NCBI RefSeq assembly: GCF_021648855.1 | Contig: NZ_JAKJHX010000057.1 | Coordinates: 10,746-31,915, forward strand | Length of the DNA: 21,170 nucleotides | DNA from: Tychonema litorale BBK16 | GTDB lineage: Bacteria; Cyanobacteriota; Cyanobacteriia; Cyanobacteriales; Microcoleaceae | Reading direction: 5' to 3' | Part shown: positions 880 through 21,170 of the stretch, piece after piece | Layout: the number at the start of each line of letters is the position of its first letter | Numbering within the stretch: position 1 is the stretch's first letter | Made by a program: the position numbers and the translations under genes | Notes under the pieces: generated by a model | Databases searched by the model: none | The model's input: only the letters and a program-made list of their open reading frames with translations | What the model was told of the DNA's origin: nothing

Positions 880-1204
880 GATTTTAGAGAAATCAATCAT
901 AGAGTCGATCGAAAGTGCGATCGAGCAATATTTCTTTACAAAGAATCCACTGTTTAAATACCTATAAGCATATTCATAGGTAGAGATAGATATACCAAAT
1001 CAGAAATATGAAAATTTAACGTAATAGTTAATATAAAATTAATAAGTCTATGCTGAAGCGCCTAGTCTCAAAACAACGAGCAACTAGAAGACTGACGCCA
1101 AAATAGCCTACAATTATTAGGTTCTGGCTTTGCACTACTGTAGTCAGCGCGATCGAGATTATTCTCAGATTTTTAAAGTTTTGTAACATTTACAGGTAAT
1201 GCCA
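880..1204 (+). promoter_or_regulatory. Upstream region of the ndhF3 cluster with two dyads
   Basis: About 325 bases without a gene. It holds a perfect inverted repeat TACCTAT-N10-ATAGGTA at 959-982 and a smaller dyad ACTAC-T-GTAGT at 1134-1144. The arms-with-10-base-spacer shape resembles LysR-type operators. In cyanobacteria the low-CO2 repressor NdhR (CcmR) controls ndhF3-ndhD3-cupA, so the 959-982 dyad is a candidate operator by position only; its sequence is not one I can match to a published site. The region is AT-rich after 1000 and no -35/-10 pair stands out clearly. Confidence 0.4.
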
Positions 1205-3064
1205 ATGGCTCAAATCCTACTCCAGACCGTTTGGTTTATACCTTGCTATCCACTCATCGGCGCATTTCTGTCGATACTGTGGTTCCCCGCTGTTACCCGC
1301 CGCACGGGGCCAAGACCATCCGGTTATGTGAACGCCATCTTAACATTCTGCGGTTTCCTACACGGGGTCATCGCCCTGACAGCTATCTGGAACCAACCCG
1401 CACAACAGCAGTTCATTCCCTGGCTGAATGTCGCAGGTTTAGACTTAACCATTCCCGTCGAAATCTCTAGTGTCACCGTTGGGGCGACAGTTTTAATTAC
1501 TGGCTTGAACTTGCTGGCGCAGATTTATGCCTTTGGCTACATGGAAATGGACTGGGGCTGGGCAAGGTTCTTTTCGCTGATGGGGCTGTTTGAAGCCGGG
1601 ATGTGCGGCTTGGTGTTGTGCAATTCCCTGTTTTTCAGCTACATGATTTTGGAAGTTCTCACCTTGGGAACCTATTTGCTAATCGGGCTGTGGTTCAATC
1701 AGTCTCTGGTGGTGACAGGAGCTCGCGATGCTTTCTTAACCAAGCGGGTAGGAGACTTATTCCTGCTGATGGGAGTAGTCTCAATTTTGCCTCTGGCTGG
1801 AACTTGGAATTTTGACGAGTTGGCTGTGTGGGCTCAGACTGCAAACCTAAACCCGACTGTAGCGACGTTGTTGGCCTTGGCTTTAATTGCCGGCCCGATG
1901 GGCAAATGCGCTCAATTTCCCTTGCACCTGTGGCTGGATGAGGCAATGGAGGGCCCTTTACCGGCAACGGTTTTGCGGAACACCGTTGTTGTGGAAACCG
2001 GTGCTTGGATTTTGATTAAATTGCAGCCGGTGATTGCTTTGTCGCCGATCGCACTGAAGACAACTATTATTGTAGGTGCTGCGACGGCCGTTGGTGCTTC
2101 TTTAATTGCGATCGCCCAAATCGATATCAAACGCACGCTTTCCTATATAGTCAGCTCATACATGGGCTTAGTTTTTATCGCCGTCGGTACTGGACAAATC
2201 CAAACAGCCCTGACATTAATGTTTGCCTACACTTTGGCAATGGGTTTGTTGGTGATGAGTATCGGTTCGGTAGTTTGGAACAGCATCACTCAGGATGTCC
2301 GTTCTCTCGGCGGTTTGTGGGCCAAGCGGCCGATATCTGCCATATCATTTCTTGTCGGCGCGGCTGGATTGGTAGGACTTCCGCCCTTCGGCTGTTTCTG
2401 GGCTTTGGAAGAATTCACATCAGAACTTTCGGAAACTCATCCTTCCTTGTTAGTAGTAGTCCTATTTGTTAACGGTGTCACTGCTTTTGGCTTGGTGCGT
2501 GTCTTCGGTTTAGTTTTTGGTGGCAAACCAAAGCAAATGACCGAACGTTCACCAGAAGTTCACTGGCCTTTCATTTTACCAATGACTGTTTTAATGGGCT
2601 TTACTTTGCACGTTCCGCACTTGCTGGCGGCGTGGCAATTGTTACCTGTGGCAAGTTTGAATTATACCGCAACTGGGCTGCTCGTTTTGTCAACGGCGAT
2701 CGGCATCGGTACAGGAGCATTTGTTTATCTGAATGAGAAATGGGAAAAACCAGTGCGAATTGGTTCTCAAGCTGTGCAAGACTTTTTTGCCTACGACTTT
2801 TACACCGCTAAACTTTACCGCATCACCATCATATTTGGAGTTGGTCTAGTTGCTCAAATTGTCTCTTGGGTCGATCGTAATATTGTTGACGGATTCGTAA
2901 ATCTCATCGGTTTTGCAACGGTTTTTGGCGGGCAAAGCCTCAAGTACAACGTTAACGGTCAAACTCAGTTTTACGCCTTGACAATTCTCTTCGGAGTTGG
3001 ACTTTTAGGACTAATTGTAAGCTGGCCATTACTAGCCCGTTTGTCGCTGATTGTCGGTGGGTAA
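1205..3064 (+). CDS. ndhF3: NDH-1 subunit NdhF3 (inducible CO2-uptake complex)
   Basis: A 619-aa, almost wholly hydrophobic protein of the NuoL/NdhF/Mrp antiporter-like family, with many predicted membrane helices. NdhF3 is a distal proton-channel subunit of NDH-1MS in the thylakoid membrane and forms the docking side for CupA. The call rests on the family hallmarks (GARDAFLTKRVGD, GPMGKCAQFPLHLWLDEAMEGP, IDIKRTLSYIVSSYMGL) and on ndhD3 and cupA downstream. The start at 1205 (MAQILL) is preferred over an ATG at 1199, because AGGT at 1194-1197 is 7 bases from 1205 but only 1 base from 1199, and NdhF3 proteins usually begin MAQ. Length is normal for NdhF3. A 13-bp stem-loop lies just after the stop. 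Confidence 0.95.
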   Translation: MAQILLQTVWFIPCYPLIGAFLSILWFPAVTRRTGPRPSGYVNAILTFCGFLHGVIALTAIWNQPAQQQFIPWLNVAGLDLTIPVEISSVTVGATVLITGLNLLAQIYAFGYMEMDWGWARFFSLMGLFEAGMCGLVLCNSLFFSYMILEVLTLGTYLLIGLWFNQSLVVTGARDAFLTKRVGDLFLLMGVVSILPLAGTWNFDELAVWAQTANLNPTVATLLALALIAGPMGKCAQFPLHLWLDEAMEGPLPATVLRNTVVVETGAWILIKLQPVIALSPIALKTTIIVGAATAVGASLIAIAQIDIKRTLSYIVSSYMGLVFIAVGTGQIQTALTLMFAYTLAMGLLVMSIGSVVWNSITQDVRSLGGLWAKRPISAISFLVGAAGLVGLPPFGCFWALEEFTSELSETHPSLLVVVLFVNGVTAFGLVRVFGLVFGGKPKQMTERSPEVHWPFILPMTVLMGFTLHVPHLLAAWQLLPVASLNYTATGLLVLSTAIGIGTGAFVYLNEKWEKPVRIGSQAVQDFFAYDFYTAKLYRITIIFGVGLVAQIVSWVDRNIVDGFVNLIGFATVFGGQSLKYNVNGQTQFYALTILFGVGLLGLIVSWPLLARLSLIVGG

Positions 3065-3178: not shown

Positions 3179-3616
3179 ATGAATCCAAATGACAAAAAAG
3201 TAAATCTTTCTCGCCGCAATTCGATTAAATTTGCCGCAGGGGCAATTGGTACAGGAATACTCGCAGCACGAGTAGGCGCTGATGTGGTTGCACCGGAACC
3301 AGCCATTGCTCAAAATGACTTGACTCCCGATGCAGCCATGGAAAAGTTGATGGACGGGAATAAGCGGTTTGTTGACAGAAAACGTCAAAGTCCCAATCAA
3401 AGCTTACCCCGCCTCGCCGAAGTTGCAAAATCTCAAAAACCCTTTGCTGCGATTCTCGGTTGTGCAGATTCCCGCTTTCCTTCCGAGATTATTTTCGATC
3501 AACGATTGAAAGCATCTCCAGTTATCTCTAAGCTAATTGAGGAGAATAAGCTGAAAGTAATTGGTGGATACTACGATTTAGATACGGGCGCAGTTAATAT
3601 TTTAGTTGAGTCTTGA
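3179..3616 (+). CDS. Beta-carbonic anhydrase-like protein with twin-arginine leader, internally deleted (zinc site incomplete)
   Basis: The 145-aa product starts with a twin-arginine-type leader (SRRNSIKFAAGAIGTG, residues 11-25) ending near APEPAIAQ (38-45), so a mature form would sit in the lumen or periplasm. Residues 50-108 match the first half of a beta-carbonic anhydrase, including GNKRF and CADSR (Cys95, Asp97, Arg99). At about residue 108 (base 3502) the protein jumps straight to the family's C-terminal end, RLKASPVISKLIEENKLKVIGGYYDLDTG in parts. The roughly 90-100 residue middle is missing, including the His-x2-Cys that completes the zinc site. The join is in frame and the stop is at the normal place. 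A Shine-Dalgarno AAGG (3167-3170) is 8 bases from the start. CO2/bicarbonate activity is therefore unlikely. It could be a decaying gene, a non-catalytic reduced protein, or an assembly error. Confidence 0.8.
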   Translation: MNPNDKKVNLSRRNSIKFAAGAIGTGILAARVGADVVAPEPAIAQNDLTPDAAMEKLMDGNKRFVDRKRQSPNQSLPRLAEVAKSQKPFAAILGCADSRFPSEIIFDQRLKASPVISKLIEENKLKVIGGYYDLDTGAVNILVES

Positions 3617-3720: not shown

Positions 3721-5250
3721 ATGCTTAGTGCCTTGCTCTGGTTGCCCGCGTTGGGTGCTGCGGTAGTCGGGTTCCTACCCGGAAATATGAGTGGAATGCG
3801 CCTGCGTTCAATAGCCTCAGCTTTTGCTCTTGCTGTTCTCCTGTTAAATATATGGCTGCTGACTCAATTCGATCAAGCCAATTCGGGACTGCAATTTCAA
3901 GAATATTTGCCTTGGATTCCCCAGTTAGGTTTGAGCTACAATTTAGGCATTGACGGCTTGTCTTTGCCACTGCTAGTTTTAAGTTCATTACTAACACTAT
4001 TAGTTATTTATGGCACCGGCGAAGTGGTGGCTCGTCCCCAGTTGTACTACGCATTAATTCTGTTAATCAATGCGGGTGTTGCCGGAGCTTTGATGTCTCA
4101 GAACTTGCTGCTGTTCGTACTATTTTACGAACTAGAATTAATTCCTTTCTACCTGTTGATTGCGATTTGGGGCGGCAAGCAGCGAGAATATGCTGCTATG
4201 AAGTTTCTCATTTACACGGCTGTTTCAGGATTTTTAGTTTTAGGAGGATTTCTAGGAATTGCTTGGCTAAGTGGTTCTTTTAACTTTGATTACAGTGCGA
4301 TGAATACTCAGGATTTGCCCTTTACAACACAATTGACGTTGTTAACAATTGTGGTAGTTGGGTTTGCAATCAAAATTCCCTTAGTACCCTTACATACCTG
4401 GCTACCTGATGCCTATGTCGAAGCTTCACCAGCAACCGCAATTTTGCTGGGCGGCATTTTGGCAAAGTTGGGAACTTATGGTTTAGTCCGATTTTGCTTG
4501 CAGTTGTTCCCCGAAACTTGGTCAATTGTGGCTCCAGGTTTGGCGATTATCGGGACTGTGAGTGTGATGTACGGGGCTTTGAGCGCGATCGCCCAAAAAG
4601 ACATCAAGCGCATGGTAGCCTATAGTTCGATCGGGCATATGGGATACATCATGGTTGCTTGCGCCGCCGGCACGAAACTCGCCTTAATCGGCGCAGTCGG
4701 ACAAATGGTTAGCCACGGCTTGATTCTAGCTTTGCTATTTTATTTAGTAGGCATCATCGAATCCAAAGTCGGTACGCGCGATTTGGATGTACTCAATGGC
4801 TTAATGAACCCGATGCGGGGTTTACCCACGGCTAGTTCACTGTTAGTATTAGGTGGAATGGCAAGCGCCGGAATTCCCGGTTTGGTGGGTTTTATTTCCG
4901 AATTCTTAGTATTTCAGGGCAGTTTTGCGGTCTTTCCAATTCCAATCTTAATCTGCATTTTAGCCTCTGGTTTAACCGCAGTTTATTTTGTAATTTTGCT
5001 CAACCGTACCTGTTTCGGGAAGTTGGATAATGCCACAGCTTATTATCCAGCAGTTACGTTTGCCGAAAATATACCAGCGCTGGTTTTGGCGAGCATCATT
5101 TTTGTGTTGGGAATTCAACCTGCTTGGCTGCTAAAATGGAGTGAATCGACAACAACTGCGATCGCAGCTACTCTTCCAAAAGACAGAATTGCTCAAGTAG
5201 CGATTAGCTATAAGCCGATGCAATCAGAGCAGATTTTGATTAATCATTAG
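3721..5250 (+). CDS. ndhD3: NDH-1 subunit NdhD3 (inducible CO2-uptake complex)
   Basis: A 509-aa membrane protein of the NuoM/NdhD antiporter-like family, one of the proton-pumping subunits in the membrane arm of NDH-1MS. Family segments are clear: GIDGLSLPLLVLSSLL, the LFYELELIPFYLLI helix with its conserved acidic residues, KIPLVPLHTWLPDAYVEASP, and AIAQKDIKRMVAYSSIGHMG. Assignment to the D3 form, rather than D1, D2 or D4, rests on the MLSALLWLPALGAA start and the ndhF3/cupA context. The length is normal. No Shine-Dalgarno sequence is visible before the ATG. NdhD3 partners NdhF3 and CupA in converting CO2 to bicarbonate using photosynthetic electron flow. It is probably co-transcribed with the rest of the cluster under low inorganic carbon. 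Confidence 0.95.
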   Translation: MLSALLWLPALGAAVVGFLPGNMSGMRLRSIASAFALAVLLLNIWLLTQFDQANSGLQFQEYLPWIPQLGLSYNLGIDGLSLPLLVLSSLLTLLVIYGTGEVVARPQLYYALILLINAGVAGALMSQNLLLFVLFYELELIPFYLLIAIWGGKQREYAAMKFLIYTAVSGFLVLGGFLGIAWLSGSFNFDYSAMNTQDLPFTTQLTLLTIVVVGFAIKIPLVPLHTWLPDAYVEASPATAILLGGILAKLGTYGLVRFCLQLFPETWSIVAPGLAIIGTVSVMYGALSAIAQKDIKRMVAYSSIGHMGYIMVACAAGTKLALIGAVGQMVSHGLILALLFYLVGIIESKVGTRDLDVLNGLMNPMRGLPTASSLLVLGGMASAGIPGLVGFISEFLVFQGSFAVFPIPILICILASGLTAVYFVILLNRTCFGKLDNATAYYPAVTFAENIPALVLASIIFVLGIQPAWLLKWSESTTTAIAATLPKDRIAQVAISYKPMQSEQILINH

Positions 5251-5270: not shown

Positions 5271-5864
5271 ATGATGAAATTCATTCCTGGTATGCTGGTT
5301 GCCGTCCGTGCTGCGATCGCGCCACTTCTATTATGGGATGCTATTGATGGCACAATCAGTGTCTGGTTCATCATCGGTTACTTAGTCGGTTTTTTGTCAG
5401 ATATCTTCGACGGCGTTATTGCCAGACGCATCGGTGTCAGCACTGCACAACTGCGCCAAGCTGATAGTTGGGCTGATGTCTGCTTCTATATCTGCGTATT
5501 TGCCAGTGCATGGCTGGTACATCAAGAAGTAGTAATAGCCTTTAGAGTGCCACTGCTTGCTGTTGTTTTTGTACAGTTAGTCTGGTGGATTGTTAACTTG
5601 GTAAAATATGGTAAACCAGCCAGCTACCACACGTACTCCGCTAAATTTTGGGGAATAACTCTGTTCATTGCTACTGTTGCTCTTTTCGGCTTTAACTATT
5701 CTGGAATTACCCTTTGGCTAGCTATTATTTCTGGAATCATTCATACTGTAGAAGAGATTGCCATGACACTGCTATTACCAGAGTGGAAGCATGATGTTTT
5801 GAGTATCTTTCATGCTTTACGGTTGCGTCGCGAATTGAGTCTTTCTTCCCCAAATAACGAGTAA
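5271..5864 (+). CDS. CDP-alcohol phosphatidyltransferase-like membrane protein
   Basis: A 197-aa protein with about six hydrophobic segments. The signature of the CDP-alcohol phosphatidyltransferase family (D-x2-D-G-x2-A-R-x8-G-x3-D-x3-D) is present with exact spacing at residues 44-69: Asp44, Asp47, Gly48, Ala51, Arg52, Asp65 and Asp69. The second conserved glycine is Leu61 here. Family members swap an alcohol for CMP on a CDP-linked lipid (for example in phosphatidylglycerol synthesis), but the substrate cannot be told. The gene begins 20 bases after the ndhD3 stop, so it is very likely in the same operon, an unexpected guest between ndhD3 and cupA. The start could be either of two consecutive ATGs (5271 or 5274), and no Shine-Dalgarno sequence is seen. 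A link to the lipid around NDH-1 is speculation. Confidence 0.75.
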   Translation: MMKFIPGMLVAVRAAIAPLLLWDAIDGTISVWFIIGYLVGFLSDIFDGVIARRIGVSTAQLRQADSWADVCFYICVFASAWLVHQEVVIAFRVPLLAVVFVQLVWWIVNLVKYGKPASYHTYSAKFWGITLFIATVALFGFNYSGITLWLAIISGIIHTVEEIAMTLLLPEWKHDVLSIFHALRLRRELSLSSPNNE

Positions 5865-6049: not shown

Positions 6050-7372
6050 ATGGTACAAACACCTACTAAACCAGCAACAAAACTACCTCCTTCCAAGCAC
6101 GAATTTGCCGACGTAATTCACAGGCTGGAAGCTGGCGGCGCAATGATTCCAGATACGCCAGAAAACCTGATGCAAATCATTGCCATCTGGAAAGCCTACG
6201 CGGTGCCAATGGACTTCTATTGGCGAGATTTGCTTTACATCGCCGAACGGGTATTTTTACAACCGCTCCCCTTCTTTAAATACTTCATACCCCAGGAGTA
6301 TTTAGACTTGCAAAATCACTATTCAGGCGATGGTGCAGATTTGCGGATTTGGCGCGGTACTGGAAGTGCTCACCCCGAACTTTTGGAGTTCATGGAAAAT
6401 GGAGAAACTGGTAAAAAGCCACGATTGTTTCACCATTTGTGGCACGATCGCATTAACATGGAATTTGCCGAAGAGTGCATGAGGGGAATGCTTTGGCACC
6501 GGGGCTTGTACGTGCCGACGAATCAATTCGATCCTTATTTGGACAGTGACGAATATAAAGCAAATGCCGATCGCGCCATTAAAGCTTACTTCAAAAAAGA
6601 CCCATTCATGCTAGGACTGCACAAAGCATTCCCCGAAATGTTTTTAGAACAGTGTCGCCAAATGTCTTACTACAGCAATCTCGGTTTATTCTGGGAAGTA
6701 ATGGCACCGGTGTTTTTTGAAGTGTCAGACTTGTATGATGAAGGGAAAGTTACCACAGTCCCGCAAGCAATGGATTTTTTGGTAAATGGCATATTTGCGA
6801 TCGCCGGAAGGCCCATTTACCACCACGTCCTAATCGACGGCGAAACATACGAAATTATCCCCAAATCCAAAGGTTTCACATGGCTTTACGAAGCAGCATT
6901 ACCCTACGTGGAAGCTGTATTTTACCGCACTTCACCGTTCCGAGGCACGAAATCTTACAATGCCCAAGCTAGGGAAGTTCCCGACGATCAAAAAGACTTC
7001 CACTACGGAGTTTTGTATGCAGACAAATTCCCCGTAGGTACTGCCGGAATTCCACCGACATTGCTAGCCCAAGATATGCTGCATTTCTTGCCGCCTTATT
7101 TGATGGATTTCTACAAACAGCGGTGTCGCGGGGAAGATGATATTCTCAATCAAATTGGAGTAACATTTCAGCGATCGATGTATTGTGTAACTTCGGCGGT
7201 GATTCACGCGCTGCGGGCTGCGCTGTTATATCCTTTGGATGACCCAAATCCGAAGCATTTGAAGGCAAATCGGGCATTTTTTGAGTCTCAGATCGATCGC
7301 TTCTGCCGCCCCGAATACGGCATGAAATACGCAGCTAAGTTGAAGGATATTCAGACTTCCGATTACAGGTAG
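6050..7372 (+). CDS. cupA: CO2 hydration protein CupA (ChpY) of NDH-1MS
   Basis: A 440-aa soluble protein of the CO2 hydration (ChpXY/CupA-CupB) family, at normal length. CupA docks on NdhF3/NdhD3 on the cytoplasmic side of the thylakoid NDH-1MS complex and is thought to hydrate CO2 to bicarbonate with a bound zinc ion. The motif LFHHLWHDRINMEFAEE is at about residues 126-141. His129 and Arg134 have the five-residue spacing I recall for the unusual His/Arg zinc ligands in the solved NDH-1MS structure (an assignment from memory). CupA rather than CupB is inferred from linkage to ndhF3 and ndhD3. The small CupS subunit gene that usually follows cupA is not found downstream. Confidence 0.95.
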   Translation: MVQTPTKPATKLPPSKHEFADVIHRLEAGGAMIPDTPENLMQIIAIWKAYAVPMDFYWRDLLYIAERVFLQPLPFFKYFIPQEYLDLQNHYSGDGADLRIWRGTGSAHPELLEFMENGETGKKPRLFHHLWHDRINMEFAEECMRGMLWHRGLYVPTNQFDPYLDSDEYKANADRAIKAYFKKDPFMLGLHKAFPEMFLEQCRQMSYYSNLGLFWEVMAPVFFEVSDLYDEGKVTTVPQAMDFLVNGIFAIAGRPIYHHVLIDGETYEIIPKSKGFTWLYEAALPYVEAVFYRTSPFRGTKSYNAQAREVPDDQKDFHYGVLYADKFPVGTAGIPPTLLAQDMLHFLPPYLMDFYKQRCRGEDDILNQIGVTFQRSMYCVTSAVIHALRAALLYPLDDPNPKHLKANRAFFESQIDRFCRPEYGMKYAAKLKDIQTSDYR

Positions 7373-7405
7373 TCATTGGGAATGGGGCATTGGGAATTGG
7401 GAATT

Positions 7406-7447
7406 GGGCATCGGGCATCGGGCATCGGGCATCGGGCATCGGGCATC
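7406..7447 (+). repeat. Heptanucleotide tandem repeat (GGGCATC)x6
   Basis: Six exact copies of GGGCATC, preceded at 7380-7405 by degenerate GGGAATT/GGGGCAT units. This is the short tandemly repeated repetitive (STRR) type known from filamentous cyanobacteria. It starts just after the cupA stop. Confidence 0.9.
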
Positions 7448-7489
7448 GTGGATTGGAAATTTGTTACTTGTTATTTAAACAAATCCTAG

Positions 7490-7577
7490 CCAGTAACCAC
7501 TAACCATTACCGATTACCGATTACCTATGCCCCATTCCCCATTCCCCCATTCCCCATTCCCCCATTCCCCATTCCCC
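7490..7577 (+). repeat. Two further short tandem repeat arrays (CCRATTA type and CCCCATT type)
   Basis: Bases 7490-7526 hold degenerate ACCATTA/ACCGATT heptads. Bases 7529-7577 hold alternating CCCCATT and CCCCCATT units, the complement of the GGGAATGGGG motif that opens the other array at 7380. The two C-rich and G-rich arrays could pair across the gap. Seven bases separate the array from the next start codon at 7585. Confidence 0.85.
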
Positions 7578-7584
7578 AAAAACT

Positions 7585-7791
7585 ATGAATAGCAAAGATG
7601 TAGCGCAATATATTGAAGCAACCGATGGAATTTCCAAACCTTGGCTGTTGGTACAATTACGTCTGAAAAAACTGCAAGAAAGGCGATCGGACATTTCTGC
7701 TGAAGAGTATATGACAGATCTTACTGACATTCACAAAGATTTGATGAATCTCGGCGAATGGTGGCTGGGAATCGAGGATGAAGTGTTCTAG
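7585..7791 (+). CDS. Small hypothetical protein (68 aa), cyanobacterial-looking
   Basis: The 68-residue product is charged and probably helical, with SKPWLLVQLRLKKLQERR in its middle and LGEWWLGIEDEVF at the end. I recognise no named domain, but the composition and the WLLVQLRLKKLQ segment look like a conserved short cyanobacterial protein rather than random sequence. No Shine-Dalgarno sequence precedes the ATG, which comes directly after a C-rich tandem repeat array. Its last four bases overlap the end of the convergent HicB-like gene (7788-8012). It does not resemble CupS, although it holds the place after cupA. Confidence 0.6.
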   Translation: MNSKDVAQYIEATDGISKPWLLVQLRLKKLQERRSDISAEEYMTDLTDIHKDLMNLGEWWLGIEDEVF

Positions 7792-8012
7792 GCGATTTGA
7801 AGAATGATGGGTGCGGGAATGAATTCACCTTCTTCTTGCCAAGCTTCGAGATACATTTCGATCACTTCTTCGCCATGTTGGATAGCTTCTGAGCGGGTTT
7901 TGCCGTGGGTACAGGGCATGATAACGCGATCGGCAAATTCTGGAATCGTCACGAGGAAAAGTTGATCCTCATCTGACCATTGGACGATCGTACTGTATTG
8001 GTTCATCGCCAT
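7788..8012 (-). CDS. HicB-like antitoxin family protein, no HicA partner
   Basis: A 74-aa protein with the HicB/UPF0150 fold pattern: YSTIVQWSDEDQLFLVTIPEF, then PCTHGKTRSEAIQHGEEVIEMYLEAWQEEG, ending IPAP. In type II toxin-antitoxin systems HicB neutralises the mRNA-cutting toxin HicA. HicB usually also carries a C-terminal DNA-binding part, which is missing here, and no HicA-like gene is found on either side. It is therefore a stand-alone HicB-fold protein, a type common in cyanobacteria, whose role is unknown. The start may be residue 1 (8012) or the second Met (8006); only a weak, distant AAGGA precedes. It converges with the 68-aa gene and overlaps it by 4 bases. Confidence 0.75.
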   Translation of the reverse strand: MAMNQYSTIVQWSDEDQLFLVTIPEFADRVIMPCTHGKTRSEAIQHGEEVIEMYLEAWQEEGEFIPAPIILQIA

Positions 8013-8068
8013 TTGTTTTAATTTTTCCTTTTCTCATTCTCGCAGTTGCTTCTCGGTGCGATCGCACT

Positions 8069-8539
8069 TTAAAAATTTTCCATCAAATCTTTTTCTTGGG
8101 AATAAACATCCCGTAGCTGTTGTAACCCCGTCCCAGAAATTGCCGATTTAACTTTGGCTACCAACAGTCCCCACTCCAACAACCTGTCAACAGAAACAGC
8201 CTCTTTGAACTTGCGCGTGTAGAATTTTGTCCAAAATGTCGGTGCTAGCTTGCTTTTCCAGCGTTTGTACCATCTGCCAAAATCTTGAAGTGCGGGTTCA
8301 TTTACTTCCACAATCGGCGGAAAATCGGCGTAGCTGACAAATCGACTGATGTGTTTGGCGTGTACATAAACCATATACCGACAGCATTCTATCCGGTAAA
8401 TGTCGTCTACTGCGATATTGAACAACAGTGCGACTGTTTCTTCGGTGACAAATCTCGCCAGCGGATGCAGGATGGGAGATTTATGAATTATCTTGGATTC
8501 TGCGATCGTCCGTGATTTTGTCGGAGTTTCTGATATCAT
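8069..8539 (-). CDS. Hypothetical protein (156 aa)
   Basis: I do not recognise a named family. The protein is soluble, with no signal peptide or membrane segment. The first 25 residues look disordered. Residues 27-125 contain regular hydrophobic spacing and several aromatic clusters (FGRWYKRWKSKLAPTFWTKFYTRKF), which suggests a folded, basic surface. An AGAGG 10 bases upstream supports the ATG at 8539. A start at the internal MVYV is possible but would lose conserved-looking sequence. It is transcribed away from the HTH gene and toward the HicB-like gene, 56 bases beyond its stop. The use of GCGATCGC-type sites and codons is like the rest of the window. Confidence 0.6.
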   Translation of the reverse strand: MISETPTKSRTIAESKIIHKSPILHPLARFVTEETVALLFNIAVDDIYRIECCRYMVYVHAKHISRFVSYADFPPIVEVNEPALQDFGRWYKRWKSKLAPTFWTKFYTRKFKEAVSVDRLLEWGLLVAKVKSAISGTGLQQLRDVYSQEKDLMENF

Positions 8540-9710: not shown

Positions 9711-11894
9711 TCAAATGGTAGAATTCTCTGGAAGTACCAACATCCGCGATTCTATTTCTTCCCAGGTTTTTGCTGATATTCTCACTGCTGCTTCTTTGCA
9801 TTGGATTATCAAATAATTGGCAGATAAATAATATCCCAGCGCCTTTGCTTCTTCGTAAGACAATTTTTTGACTATTTCTGGATTGAGATGGAGTGCATGA
9901 CACCAGGTATCTAAAAAGCGATCTAAAAATGCTAAGTATATTTGTATAGGTTTGTCAGCATCAGGCGATTGCTTCAGGAGTTCTTTCAGTTGAGCAATGA
10001 GTTGAGTCAAGTTCACCTCCTTGAAGATTTTAACGTTTTTAAATTTTTGGGCAAACTTAATGGCTTTTCTGATGGTGTAGTCGATGGTGTATTCATAGCG
10101 TAAGACGGTGAAGTTGCTGTAGCCGATAGTGATGCTATTGGCGTTGGCGATGCCGTTGGCATTGGCGATGTCATTGACATTGGCGTACCCGATCTCGTAG
10201 ACGCTGGCATAGCCGATGTTGTCGTCGTATCTGACTATACCATCCGCGATCATCAAGTAGTTGAAGTTCGTGTTTCCGATCAAGATCGCGATCGCCGCAG
10301 CACGTTTACCCACAGGCTTAAAATCACCTTCCGAGTCCTTAGTCGCTGCATCTGCCCATTGCAATAGCCCTTGCAACTTCGGCGTGTTAATGTACTTTTG
10401 AGCCTCTTTTTCCATTAACAGCAGCAAGTCATCAGCCCCATTTTTTGAACGAACCAACCCCGCTACCAACAAAAACACCTCTCGCCAGCGTGAATCTAAA
10501 AGATGATCGAAAACTAACTGCTCAATTAAATTATTATCAGCAATATATTGAGCCGTCAGATATTCCTGAAGCGTCAAATGCGAAAACGAGTACACATCCT
10601 CAGCTCGTTCTACCAAAATCCCCTGTTGAACTGCAATAGCTTTCAGAACCGCCTCACCGTCTAAATGCTTTGGTGCATTCAAATTGCCTGCTAAAAAAGT
10701 TTTGATTTCCTCAACCACTTCTCGCTGCGAAAAAAACAGCTTATCAGTCTCAAAACCACTATAAGCAATCTCCGATAACAAACTCTCCTCTAACTCCGTG
10801 CTGAGTCCTTGATAAATTTCCTCTTTCTGAATCCGCTTTTCCGCCGCCCATTCTTCCAACAATATCCGCAAAGCCTGTTTGTAAAGAACACTGCGATTAT
10901 TCGGAAAATTTTGCGATCGATCGTAATTGAGACAGAGGAAAGTTAGCAATAAAGGCGTGTGGGCTAACTCTTTAGCTGCTGCATATTCTGGCTTTTGCAA
11001 TAACTCCCAACATTTTTGAGCCGTTCCCGCTTGTTTATCGACCTCTGACTGAAACCAGTTACCAATAAATTGCTCAATTTGAGTATCGTCAAAGTCGGCA
11101 AGTTTTACATCGGTAAAGCGTTTAAAATTGTTTCGGTAGGCGGCTGTGCGACAAGAGACAATAAAGCGATTTTTGTCATAGCGATCGACAAAATTTTGAA
11201 TTTGACTAATCACCTCATTGGTGTTGACTGTCGGCACTTCATCCAATCCATCCAGCAAGATTAACAGTTTTCCTTGCTCTAATGCCTTAGTGATAAATTG
11301 CTCATAATGGGGAAATCCACAAATTTTAAACTCTTCAACAATTAATTTTTCTATGTCTATCTGGCTAGATATAAAACTTTTAAGTTCGATAAAAACGGGA
11401 ATACAATTATGTTTAAATCCGCCTTTTTTGCCCTTCAGTGCTTCGAGTCCCGTTTTCCGTAAAAAAGTTGATTTTCCCGCTCCTGGTTGCCCTAGAACCA
11501 TCAAATATTGCTTCTGATTAGCAATTTTTAGCCCTTCTTGCTTCTTGCAGTCTTGCTGCTGAAAACTTCGCTTGTTTGCTTTGCGGTAAGCTTCTTCTAA
11601 ATTTTGGATTGATTCAAAACTGCGGATTTGTTGCTCATCCAAAAACTGTACAGCAGTATAAACTGATTCTAATGGCACTGCTTCCCGCATTCCCAAGGCT
11701 TTCAGAATGCCGTGACGCTTGAAGTAGCGTTTGCCGTAGTCCCCCGATGCAGTGTGAATTAGCTCTTTAGTTTTGTCATCTAGCTTTTTGCCGATCAAAC
11801 CGAGAAACTTACCACCGCCTTCAAAGACTGACTGGAAAATGGGGAGGGCGATACCGCTAACACAAGCCAGACCAAATGCTTCAAATCCTGTCAT
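9711..11894 (-). CDS. NACHT-domain NTPase (bacterial NLR-like), candidate defence gene
   Basis: A 727-aa protein in the STAND NTPase class. Residues 1-125 form an N-terminal helical part with no recognised domain. The NACHT domain follows: Walker A GQPGAGKST (135-143), Walker B LILLDGLDE (211-219), and VSCRT (247-250). The winged-helix-side motif FSHLTLQEYLTAQYIA is at 437-452. Residues about 550-600 are a low-complexity stretch rich in Ala, Asn, Ile and Tyr, encoded by degenerate DNA repeats at 10110-10245. The C-terminal end contains AAVRISAKTWEEIESRML (702-719). Bacterial NACHT proteins are known antiphage sensors or signalling ATPases; no nuclease, TIR or protease effector is seen here. 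It is the last gene of a three-gene unit, 36 bases after the 68-aa gene. There is no good Shine-Dalgarno sequence before the ATG, so coupling is plausible. Confidence 0.85.
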   Translation of the reverse strand: MTGFEAFGLACVSGIALPIFQSVFEGGGKFLGLIGKKLDDKTKELIHTASGDYGKRYFKRHGILKALGMREAVPLESVYTAVQFLDEQQIRSFESIQNLEEAYRKANKRSFQQQDCKKQEGLKIANQKQYLMVLGQPGAGKSTFLRKTGLEALKGKKGGFKHNCIPVFIELKSFISSQIDIEKLIVEEFKICGFPHYEQFITKALEQGKLLILLDGLDEVPTVNTNEVISQIQNFVDRYDKNRFIVSCRTAAYRNNFKRFTDVKLADFDDTQIEQFIGNWFQSEVDKQAGTAQKCWELLQKPEYAAAKELAHTPLLLTFLCLNYDRSQNFPNNRSVLYKQALRILLEEWAAEKRIQKEEIYQGLSTELEESLLSEIAYSGFETDKLFFSQREVVEEIKTFLAGNLNAPKHLDGEAVLKAIAVQQGILVERAEDVYSFSHLTLQEYLTAQYIADNNLIEQLVFDHLLDSRWREVFLLVAGLVRSKNGADDLLLLMEKEAQKYINTPKLQGLLQWADAATKDSEGDFKPVGKRAAAIAILIGNTNFNYLMIADGIVRYDDNIGYASVYEIGYANVNDIANANGIANANSITIGYSNFTVLRYEYTIDYTIRKAIKFAQKFKNVKIFKEVNLTQLIAQLKELLKQSPDADKPIQIYLAFLDRFLDTWCHALHLNPEIVKKLSYEEAKALGYYLSANYLIIQCKEAAVRISAKTWEEIESRMLVLPENSTI
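10110..10250 (-). repeat. Degenerate short repeats coding a low-complexity segment of the NACHT protein
   Basis: On the + strand, near-copies of GGCGTTGGCGATGCCGTT-like 18-base units follow one another. In the protein they give YANVND, IANANG, IANANS and similar six-residue units (about residues 550-595). Many cyanobacterial NACHT proteins have alternating Ala-rich stretches at this place; this is recalled from general knowledge. Confidence 0.6.
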
Positions 11895-20433: not shown

Positions 20434-20580
20434 TTGACATACTCCCCGGCGTGAACGCGCGGGGATTCTTGACACTTCACGGAGATGTGCCACAAGTGGT
20501 CTTACCTTCTCTCTGTGTCCATTTAGAGTCGTGGCAATGCCCTATCCCGACTTTGTTTATATTCTTAGCTGCATTCTGAT
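20434..20580 (-). ncRNA. Probable omega/reRNA region and right end of IS200/IS605-family element
   Basis: The minus-strand sequence after the tnpB stop ends in the hairpin AGAATCCCCG-N10-CCGGGGAGT, then ATGTCAA. TCAA is the type of right-end cleavage tetranucleotide used by IS608-type transposases, so the element end is placed at 20434. In TnpB systems the guide (omega) RNA overlaps the tnpB 3' end and runs into the flank. The guide here would begin TCGACTCTTGATTCTT (20433 down to 20418). RNA limits are inferred. Confidence 0.4.
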
Positions 20581-21170
20581 CGCGATCGTGTTCGATGCCG
20601 CAATTCAAGCATTGAACCGATCGAATTTTCAAATCCAATTTCCCCCATCTAAAACCACAATTTGAACAAATTTGACTTGTGGGTTCCCAGCGACTAATTA
20701 CCCTAAACTCTCTGCCAAACTTTTCAGACTTAGCCTCGCACAAAGCTCTAAACTCGTACCATCCCTGTTGGCTAATCGCCCTGGCAAGTTTACGGTTTTT
20801 GACCATGCCAGACACGTTCAAATCTTCCAAAATAATAGTTTGATTCTCACTAACAACTTTCGTCGATAGTTTGTGTAAAAAGTCTTTACGGGTATCTGCA
20901 ATTTGATTGTGCAGTTTGGCTATTTTAATCCGAGTTTTGTTTCGGCGCTTTGAGTCTTTGGGCTGCCTTGCCAACTTGCGTTGCAGTCTGCGAATTTTTC
21001 GGTCTAACTGTTTGTAGCTTGGACTTTGGGCTGATGTTCCATCACTCATCACTGCAAAGGTCTTAATACCTAGATCGATGCCGATGCTGTGGTTTTTAGC
21101 TTCGACAATATCGGCATTAATCTCTACAACAAAGCTCAGGAAATAACGATTAGCGCAATCTTTAATTACT
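20477..21170 (-). CDS. tnpB: IS200/IS605-family RNA-guided nuclease TnpB (partial, 5' end outside window)
   Basis: About 230 residues are visible and the frame stays open to the window edge. The first RuvC motif GIDLGIKTFAV lies at about 21080-21050. The second catalytic Glu is in ILEDLNVSG, and the third Asp in HDRDQNAAKNI. The zinc finger CSNCG...CLNCG is intact, so the DED centre and zinc ribbon look functional. TnpB proteins are RNA-guided endonucleases that cut the donor site after transposition and help keep the element in the genome. No TnpA (Y1 transposase) is in the window. The tail after the last RuvC motif (GHCHDSKWTQREGKTTCGTSP) is the usual variable end, overlapping the RNA scaffold. 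Confidence 0.9.
   Translation of the reverse strand, partial: VIKDCANRYFLSFVVEINADIVEAKNHSIGIDLGIKTFAVMSDGTSAQSPSYKQLDRKIRRLQRKLARQPKDSKRRNKTRIKIAKLHNQIADTRKDFLHKLSTKVVSENQTIILEDLNVSGMVKNRKLARAISQQGWYEFRALCEAKSEKFGREFRVISRWEPTSQICSNCGFRWGKLDLKIRSVQCLNCGIEHDRDQNAAKNINKVGIGHCHDSKWTQREGKTTCGTSP

What the first reader, a model, noticed from the sequence alone, without database searches (positions are those of the whole stretch)
3179..3616. In-frame internal deletion removes half the zinc site of a lumen-targeted beta-carbonic anhydrase inside the NDH-1MS cluster
Seen: residues 1-108 and 109-145 match the two ends of a beta-CA; CADSR is kept, but the His-x2-Cys motif and about 90-100 residues between are missing. 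Frame, stop, leader and ribosome-binding site are all kept. Known: beta-CAs need both Cys and His-x2-Cys ligands. As I recall, a thylakoid beta-CA (EcaB) acts with CupA/CupB-type complexes in Synechocystis. Inference: a full-length operon CA was deleted recently, or a shortened non-catalytic version is kept as a structural partner.
Basis: partly seen in the sequence, partly recalled or inferred. Interest (0 to 1): 0.75.

Follow-up and report, generated by a model that had tools for sequence, protein, structure and literature searches.

The report
Half-deleted carbonic anhydrase in CO2-uptake operon
A gene for an exported carbonic anhydrase that normally sits inside a cyanobacterial CO2-uptake operon has lost its middle third, including half of its zinc site, and since relatives have broken or lost the same gene several times over, this is most likely a freshly dead gene rather than a new kind of protein.

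Summary
Window 3179-3616 encodes 145 aa; its residues 1-108 and 109-145 match residues 1-108 and 203-239 of a 237-239 aa Tat-type beta-carbonic anhydrase (CA) lying between ndhF3 and ndhD3 in relatives. Exactly 94 codons (282 bp) are missing in frame, with the His-x2-Cys zinc ligands. No short relative was seen among 23 distinct orthologous loci or the 119 other listed hits (of 1281) of a 5.8-billion-protein search. That search holds the short form on two contigs, so a one-off assembly collapse is unlikely.

Best reading: a recent loss-of-function deletion at a place where this gene is often lost. In the genus, 8 of 28 other genomes lack the CA while ndhF3 and ndhD3 remain; two trees each force at least 5 changes of presence/absence. 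Genome G048 has its own ~269-bp internal deletion in the same slot, out of frame. Three further species hold a C-terminal relic with dN about equal to dS. The 145 retained codons show no relaxed selection (omega 0.11; neutrality rejected), so the deletion is young or, less likely, the short protein is still used. A deep paralogue, 52% identical, is intact elsewhere in the genome.

The parts
1199..3064 (+). ndhF3, 621 aa, intact; 5' neighbour
3179..3616 (+). shortened Tat-type beta-carbonic anhydrase gene, 145 aa
3179..3313 (+). leader, residues 1-45, with twin-arginine motif SRRNS (reading of the sequence; the end of the leader and export were not tested)
3461..3475 (+). CADSR, residues 95-99: the kept half of the zinc/catalytic site
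3502..3503 (+). deletion junction; 282 bp (reference codons 109-202, with GH[K/E]xCG) missing; GATTG one base right of the junction also stands at the left edge in several relatives
3503..3616 (+). C-terminal piece, residues 109-145 = reference residues 203-239, and stop
3721..5250 (+). ndhD3, 509 aa, intact; 3' neighbour
5271..5864 (+). CDP-alcohol phosphatidyltransferase-like gene between ndhD3 and cupA
6050..7372 (+). cupA (ChpXY), 440 aa, intact

Best explanation
A full-length, Tat-type beta-CA encoded between ndhF3 and ndhD3 lost 282 bp from its middle in this lineage, probably by illegitimate recombination or replication slippage near a short GATTG repeat (inferred). The deletion removes two of the zinc ligands and the core between the first strand and the C-terminus, so the product should neither bind zinc as a beta-CA nor fold as one (inferred from family knowledge). 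The frame stayed open by chance (1 in 3). The gene is now a young pseudogene, one case of a repeated loss of this accessory CA in the family. The NDH-1MS genes beside it are untouched, and the cell keeps an older paralogous Tat-type beta-CA elsewhere that may cover the need (inferred).
For: Unshortened orthologues in the same slot: 20 named loci and 20 loci in 19 of 28 other same-genus genomes; the two sets share 17 contigs by length, so 23 distinct loci, one cut by its contig end. No short relative among the 119 other listed hits, all 237-239 aa (1161 weaker hits not listed). Absence with ndhF3 directly followed by ndhD3 in 8 of 28; presence/absence forced to change at least 5 times on the ndhF3 tree and on the rpoB tree. 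Independent out-of-frame deletion of ~269 bp in the same slot in G048, with the C-terminal remnant GYYNLETGMVKLVA readable in another frame. C-terminal relics on the cupA side in G039, G041, G042 with NG86 dN/dS pairs 0.021/0.023, 0.054/0.072, 0.061/0.073, and a frameshift in G040. Intact paralogue in the own genome and in 26 of 29 same-genus genomes (own included), among them all 8 without the operon CA. Short form on two contigs, the longest 106,529 bp, while the own contig is 31,915 bp.
Against: The 145 retained codons look constrained: omega on the window branch 0.11 (about 0.055-0.21 at 95%, read from a profile) against 0.206 background; omega = 1 is worse by 23 log-likelihood units, or by 15 on the CA's own tree. 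No stop or frameshift has yet appeared in it. That the 8 genomes without the operon CA all have the paralogue is no test of redundancy, since only 3 of 29 lack it. Reads were not available, so an assembly error shared by both contigs is not fully excluded.
Confidence: 0.83

Rival explanations
1. The short protein is kept for a non-catalytic purpose: still exported by Tat, it serves as a structural or regulatory partner of NDH-1MS or binds another CA.
For: Open frame, leader, stop and spacing all kept; purifying selection on the retained codons; only 5 of 145 residues are unique to it against 20 same-genus loci.
Against: Seen as a single sequence, with no second lineage sharing it in the hits listed; gene absent in 8 of 28 other genomes; the missing part is highly conserved in the 22 full-length rows aligned; the selection signal covers the whole terminal branch, most of which may predate the deletion. 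The AlphaFold model has no confident fold (mean pLDDT 36), but the full-length control is also poor (45), so this says little.
Confidence: 0.08
2. Assembly artefact: the strain has a full-length gene and the assembler dropped 282 bp.
For: Draft assembly of 226 contigs; short repeat at the break.
Against: The same 145-aa protein lies on a contig longer than the own one; the shared repeat is about 5 bp, too short to mislead an assembler; no full-length copy of this gene elsewhere in the genome. Whether the other contig comes from independent reads is unknown.
Confidence: 0.05
3. The short allele was acquired, already shortened, with the operon from another Microcoleaceae lineage.
For: Window CA synonymous distance to G002 and G008 is 0.58 and 0.72, against 0.25 between those two, although rpoB puts the window with them at 100/100; ndhF3 and rpoB trees disagree on G004/G024/G026.
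Against: No donor with the short form was found; the position of the window CA in its own tree has no support (36/0).
Confidence: 0.04

Closest known systems
Full-length ndhF3-ndhD3 beta-CA of Microcoleaceae (e.g. P0005, L006 Tychonema bourrellyi, L022 Microcoleus vaginatus)
   Same: L006 and L022: same operon slot; all three: same kind of leader with twin-arginine motif, 84-90% identical in the N-terminal 105-110 residues
   Different: Have the 94 codons with GH[K/E]xCG that the window lacks
EcaB (slr0051) of Synechocystis PCC 6803
   Same: Beta-CA with a twin-arginine leader, linked to NDH-1 3/4 function (passages of PMC11360081, passages and section 12 of PMC10096703)
   Different: EcaB is reported as an active enzyme; those papers mention a putative lipoprotein site, for which the window leader has no Cys; orthology not tested (no EcaB sequence at hand)
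G048 truncated CA (L091:4039-4440)
   Same: Same slot, N-terminal half with CADSR kept, His-x2-Cys lost by an internal deletion
   Different: Different breakpoints (~269 bp), out of frame, so the C-terminus is no longer read in frame
Beta-CA structures 2a5v/1ym3
   Same: Best solved relatives by sequence of the full-length form, E 2e-33
   Different: Complete enzymes; they align through the zinc site that the window lacks

Membership tests
Beta-carbonic anhydrase (Pro_CA, PF00484), active enzyme | Sequence homology over the family cut-off | tested here: met
   33.3 bits against 25.7, in two stretches
Beta-carbonic anhydrase (Pro_CA, PF00484), active enzyme | First zinc Cys and Asp-Arg dyad (CxDxR; role recalled) | tested here: met
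   CADSR, residues 95-99
Beta-carbonic anhydrase (Pro_CA, PF00484), active enzyme | His-x2-Cys zinc ligands (role recalled) | tested here: not met
   GH[K/E]xCG lies in the missing reference codons 109-202
Beta-carbonic anhydrase (Pro_CA, PF00484), active enzyme | Complete fold with dimer | tested here: inconclusive
   AlphaFold models of both short and full forms are of low confidence; dimer not modelled
EcaB-type thylakoid CA | Orthology with slr0051 | not tested
   Sequence of slr0051 not obtained
EcaB-type thylakoid CA | Twin-arginine leader | tested here: met
   SRRNS at residues 11-15, invariant in 23 of 23 aligned rows; actual export not testable
Pseudogene by deletion | Loss of essential residues relative to intact orthologues in the same place | tested here: met
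Pseudogene by deletion | Relaxed selection on what remains | tested here: not met
   omega 0.11 on the window branch, 1 rejected; also expected if the deletion is recent

The most novel reading that the evidence does not exclude
The 145-aa remnant is a kept, zinc-free, exported version of the operon CA that works as a non-enzymatic partner at the lumen side of NDH-1MS, which would mean that the CA's place in this operon is partly structural.
Probability: 0.08. Interest if true: 0.65.

Novelty: new member of a known kind. Interest (0 to 1): 0.3.

Why it matters
By itself the broken gene is an ordinary loss of function. The setting is more useful. A Tat-type beta-CA is encoded between ndhF3 and ndhD3 in many Microcoleaceae, doubled in some species, and absent or broken in others while the CO2-uptake genes stay. 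A review reports a channel in NdhF3 from the CA site to the thylakoid lumen (PMC13249358, passages). Closely related strains with, without and with a broken CA of this kind are a natural experiment on whether NDH-1MS draws CO2 from the lumen and whether a lumenal CA feeds it. I did not see this gene order described in the passages read or in the titles and abstract beginnings listed by my searches (one search listed none); that is far from a full check of the literature.

Tried and rejected
Structure: AlphaFold of the short and a full-length form gave mean pLDDT 36 and 45, with 23-row alignments of 90% mean column identity; not used for folds, and no fold search was made. The weak hit at G000:C6 (E 0.0075, 28% identity, two stops) was treated as chance; a tblastn of that stretch with the full-length CA showed nothing over 33% identity at 1e-3. 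The idea that the genus paralogue is the second of the tandem CAs in genus g10 was tested by a tree and rejected: the tandem copies group with the first copies of g10 (96/93), and the paralogue is a long separate branch. Rows left out of that tree: L023, G029 and 2 of 7 paralogue rows did not pass the motif filter, the G048 stub and the window CA were set aside, and only 9 of the 20 full-length same-genus loci were put in. The rpoB tree used 24 of 29 genomes: G005, G006, G010 and G016 had only partial matches, G009 none; so G016, one of the 8 without CA, is not on it. Selection on the G048 stub: omega 0.23 against 0.167 background, 1 rejected by 10 units, on a very long branch; this shows no relaxation either and does not help to call that stub dead, its frameshift does. 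My codon model is home-made and stopped at 40-50 iterations (15 for ndhF3), so small likelihood differences are not to be trusted. Two paper searches, for pseudogenes or gene loss around cyanobacterial CAs and for Tychonema CAs, listed nothing to the point.

The exact bases of the event could not be settled: several relatives read GATCAAGGATTGGGAGAT at the left edge and one reads AACAGATTGAAAGC at the right, the window GATCAACGATTGAAAGC.

Full report
WHAT IS THERE. Window 3179-3616 is a clean 145-codon frame between ndhF3 (1199-3064) and ndhD3 (3721-5250), with cupA at 6050-7372. The protein begins with a twin-arginine leader (SRRNS), carries CADSR at residues 95-99 and ends in GGYYDLDTGAVNILVES. 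Pfam Pro_CA matches in two stretches. The nearest relatives are 237-239 aa. Twenty named loci came from one scan of genome contigs; all 20 read on without a stop through the part that the window lacks (19 complete, L010 cut by its contig end). The window lacks exactly 94 codons, reference 109-202, holding GH[K/E]xCG, the His-x2-Cys zinc ligands of beta-CAs (their role is recalled family knowledge). At DNA level the window reads GATCAA|CGATTGAAAGC; several relatives have GATCAAGGATTG at the left edge and one has AACAGATTGAAAGC at the right, so a GATTG repeat lies beside the junction.

IS IT REAL. The own genome (G000, 5.27 Mb, 226 contigs, 99.9% complete) has no full-length version of this gene. 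Its other beta-CA of this kind is at C27:41077-41757, 52% identical to the full-length P0005 and intact (236 aa); the Pro_CA family search of the own genome listed only that one. In the 5.8-billion-protein collection the 145-aa sequence stands for one member sequence on two contigs, the longest 106,529 bp, while the own contig C57 is 31,915 bp. So at least one contig other than C57 shows it, though perhaps from the same organism or reads. The other 119 listed of 1281 hits are all 237-239 aa; the remaining 1161 were not shown.

RELATIVES IN THE GENUS. Of 28 other genomes, 19 carry the operon CA (20 loci, G009 twice; the one of G005 cut by its contig end), none shortened. Eight genomes (G004, G015, G016, G019, G020, G022, G024, G026) have ndhF3 followed by ndhD3 with a gap of 87-412 bp and no CA match; the blastn hits of these gaps to CA-bearing loci lie in the repeat-bearing flanks of the CA, with only chance-size hits (16 bases or fewer) inside the gene. 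For G010, 84% complete, this ndhF3 was not found. In 7 of the 8 gaps I count 4 or more heptamer-type words (AACTGT and kin), in G020 one; among the 21 CA-bearing loci (window included) 7 have 3 or more on at least one side and 1 (G018) on both (no chance control made, G005 lacks the 3' side). Recombination between such repeats could excise the gene cleanly; this is an inference. The ndhF3 tree needs at least 5 changes of presence/absence (30 rows), and so does the rpoB tree (24 rows; 7 of the 8 no-CA genomes). Since L023, L024 and genus g10 have a CA in the same slot, I read these changes as losses, although regain by recombination is possible. In rpoB the window groups with G002 and G008 at 100/100, both with a full-length CA.

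RELATIVES IN THE FAMILY. Among 61 family genomes (own included), 50 have a match to the full-length CA at E 1e-15. In genus g10, all 10 genomes have a CA or a piece of one between ndhF3 and ndhD3: 9 have an unbroken first CA, and 5 of these (G046, G047, G049, G050, G053) have two CAs in tandem. The tenth, G048, reads 130 codons up to TPEEM, then RLL and a stop; another frame gives GYYNLETGMVKLVA and a stop, the normal C-terminus. Measured against 234-aa relatives this is a separate internal deletion of about 269 bp, out of frame. In genus g9, G039, G041 and G042 hold only the C-terminal half, on the cupA side of the operon, and G040 the same with a frameshift; the ndhF3-ndhD3 gap of g9 was not examined. 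Pairwise NG86 dN and dS of the three are about equal (0.021/0.023, 0.054/0.072, 0.061/0.073), as for a dead relic. G056 has another piece with two stops.

SELECTION. With a home-made GY94-type branch model on 21 sequences and the 145 retained codons, omega on the window's branch is 0.11 against 0.206 elsewhere; equality is not rejected (gain of 1.6 log units), omega = 1 is worse by 23 units. The profile gives roughly 0.055-0.21. On the CA's own tree the values are 0.126, 0.192 and 15 units. ndhF3 as a control: 0.126 on the window branch, 0.119 elsewhere. If the gene had omega 0.1 before the deletion, at most about 12% of the branch could have been neutral; if 0.2, about 1%; if 0, 21% (my arithmetic). 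So either the deletion is recent or the short protein is still constrained. The data cannot tell these apart, because only one short sequence is known.

HOW IT WORKS. Shown: the zinc ligands and the core are missing; the neighbours are intact; the same gene is absent or broken in other lineages. Inferred: no CA activity; the Tat leader would still export the remnant if expressed; the operon tolerates the loss, perhaps because of the paralogue, which is present in 26 of 29 same-genus genomes (own included) and in all 8 without the operon CA (only 3 genomes lack it, so this is not a test). I put 0.83 on a young pseudogene.

AGAINST WHAT IS KNOWN. EcaB is described as a Tat-leader beta-CA, mostly at the thylakoid, which interacts with CupA/CupB (review PMC10096703, passages and section 12; research paper PMC11360081, passages). 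Two comparative papers report that ecaB is patchy: not detected in 12 alkaliphiles, scattered in thermophiles (passages of PMC5472144 and PMC9120777). A 2026 review describes a channel in NdhF3 toward the lumen (passages of PMC13249358). Patchy loss of such CAs is thus not new in kind; repeated breakage inside the ndhF3-ndhD3 slot was not seen in the passages read.

CAVEATS. The ndhF3, CA and rpoB trees disagree: G004/G024/G026 join G008 in ndhF3 but not in rpoB, and the window CA is far from those of G002 and G008 (dS 0.58 and 0.72). The operon may be exchanged between lineages, so the deletion cannot be dated against the species tree.

Noticed in passing
L097, L099, L100, L103, L105 (genus g10): Two beta-CA genes in tandem between ndhF3 and ndhD3 in 5 of 10 genomes of the genus; the second groups with the first copies of g10, on a long branch.
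   Followed up: partly
L092, L093, L094, L095 (genus g9): C-terminal CA halves downstream of cupA with dN about equal to dS in three, one with a frameshift; in L094 cupA itself matches in two frames.
   Followed up: partly
L103:7189-8654: ndhD3 of G049 matches in two pieces in different frames, so it is broken or mis-sequenced there.
   Followed up: no
window 5271-5864: CDP-alcohol phosphatidyltransferase gene between ndhD3 and cupA, matched in only some related loci (L009, L017, L020, L021).
   Followed up: no
window 7372-8069: No cupS (fasciclin) open frame seen after cupA in the window; three fasciclin matches lie elsewhere in the genome (G000:C31, C65, C122).
   Followed up: partly
window 9711-11894 (-): NACHT-domain protein with NCH2 C-terminus; no PADLOC match.
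   Followed up: partly
window 20477-21052 (-): OrfB-IS605-type piece with Cas12f1-like TNB domain, 191 aa; the Pfam transposase match starts only at profile position 44.
   Followed up: no
L056, L057, L059, L073, L079, L080, L081 (ndhF3-ndhD3 gap): Heptamer-type repeats fill the gap where the CA is absent.
   Followed up: partly
window 3179-3616 against L058 and L062: Operon CA and rpoB give different kinship for the window, hinting at exchange of the operon between lineages.
   Followed up: partly
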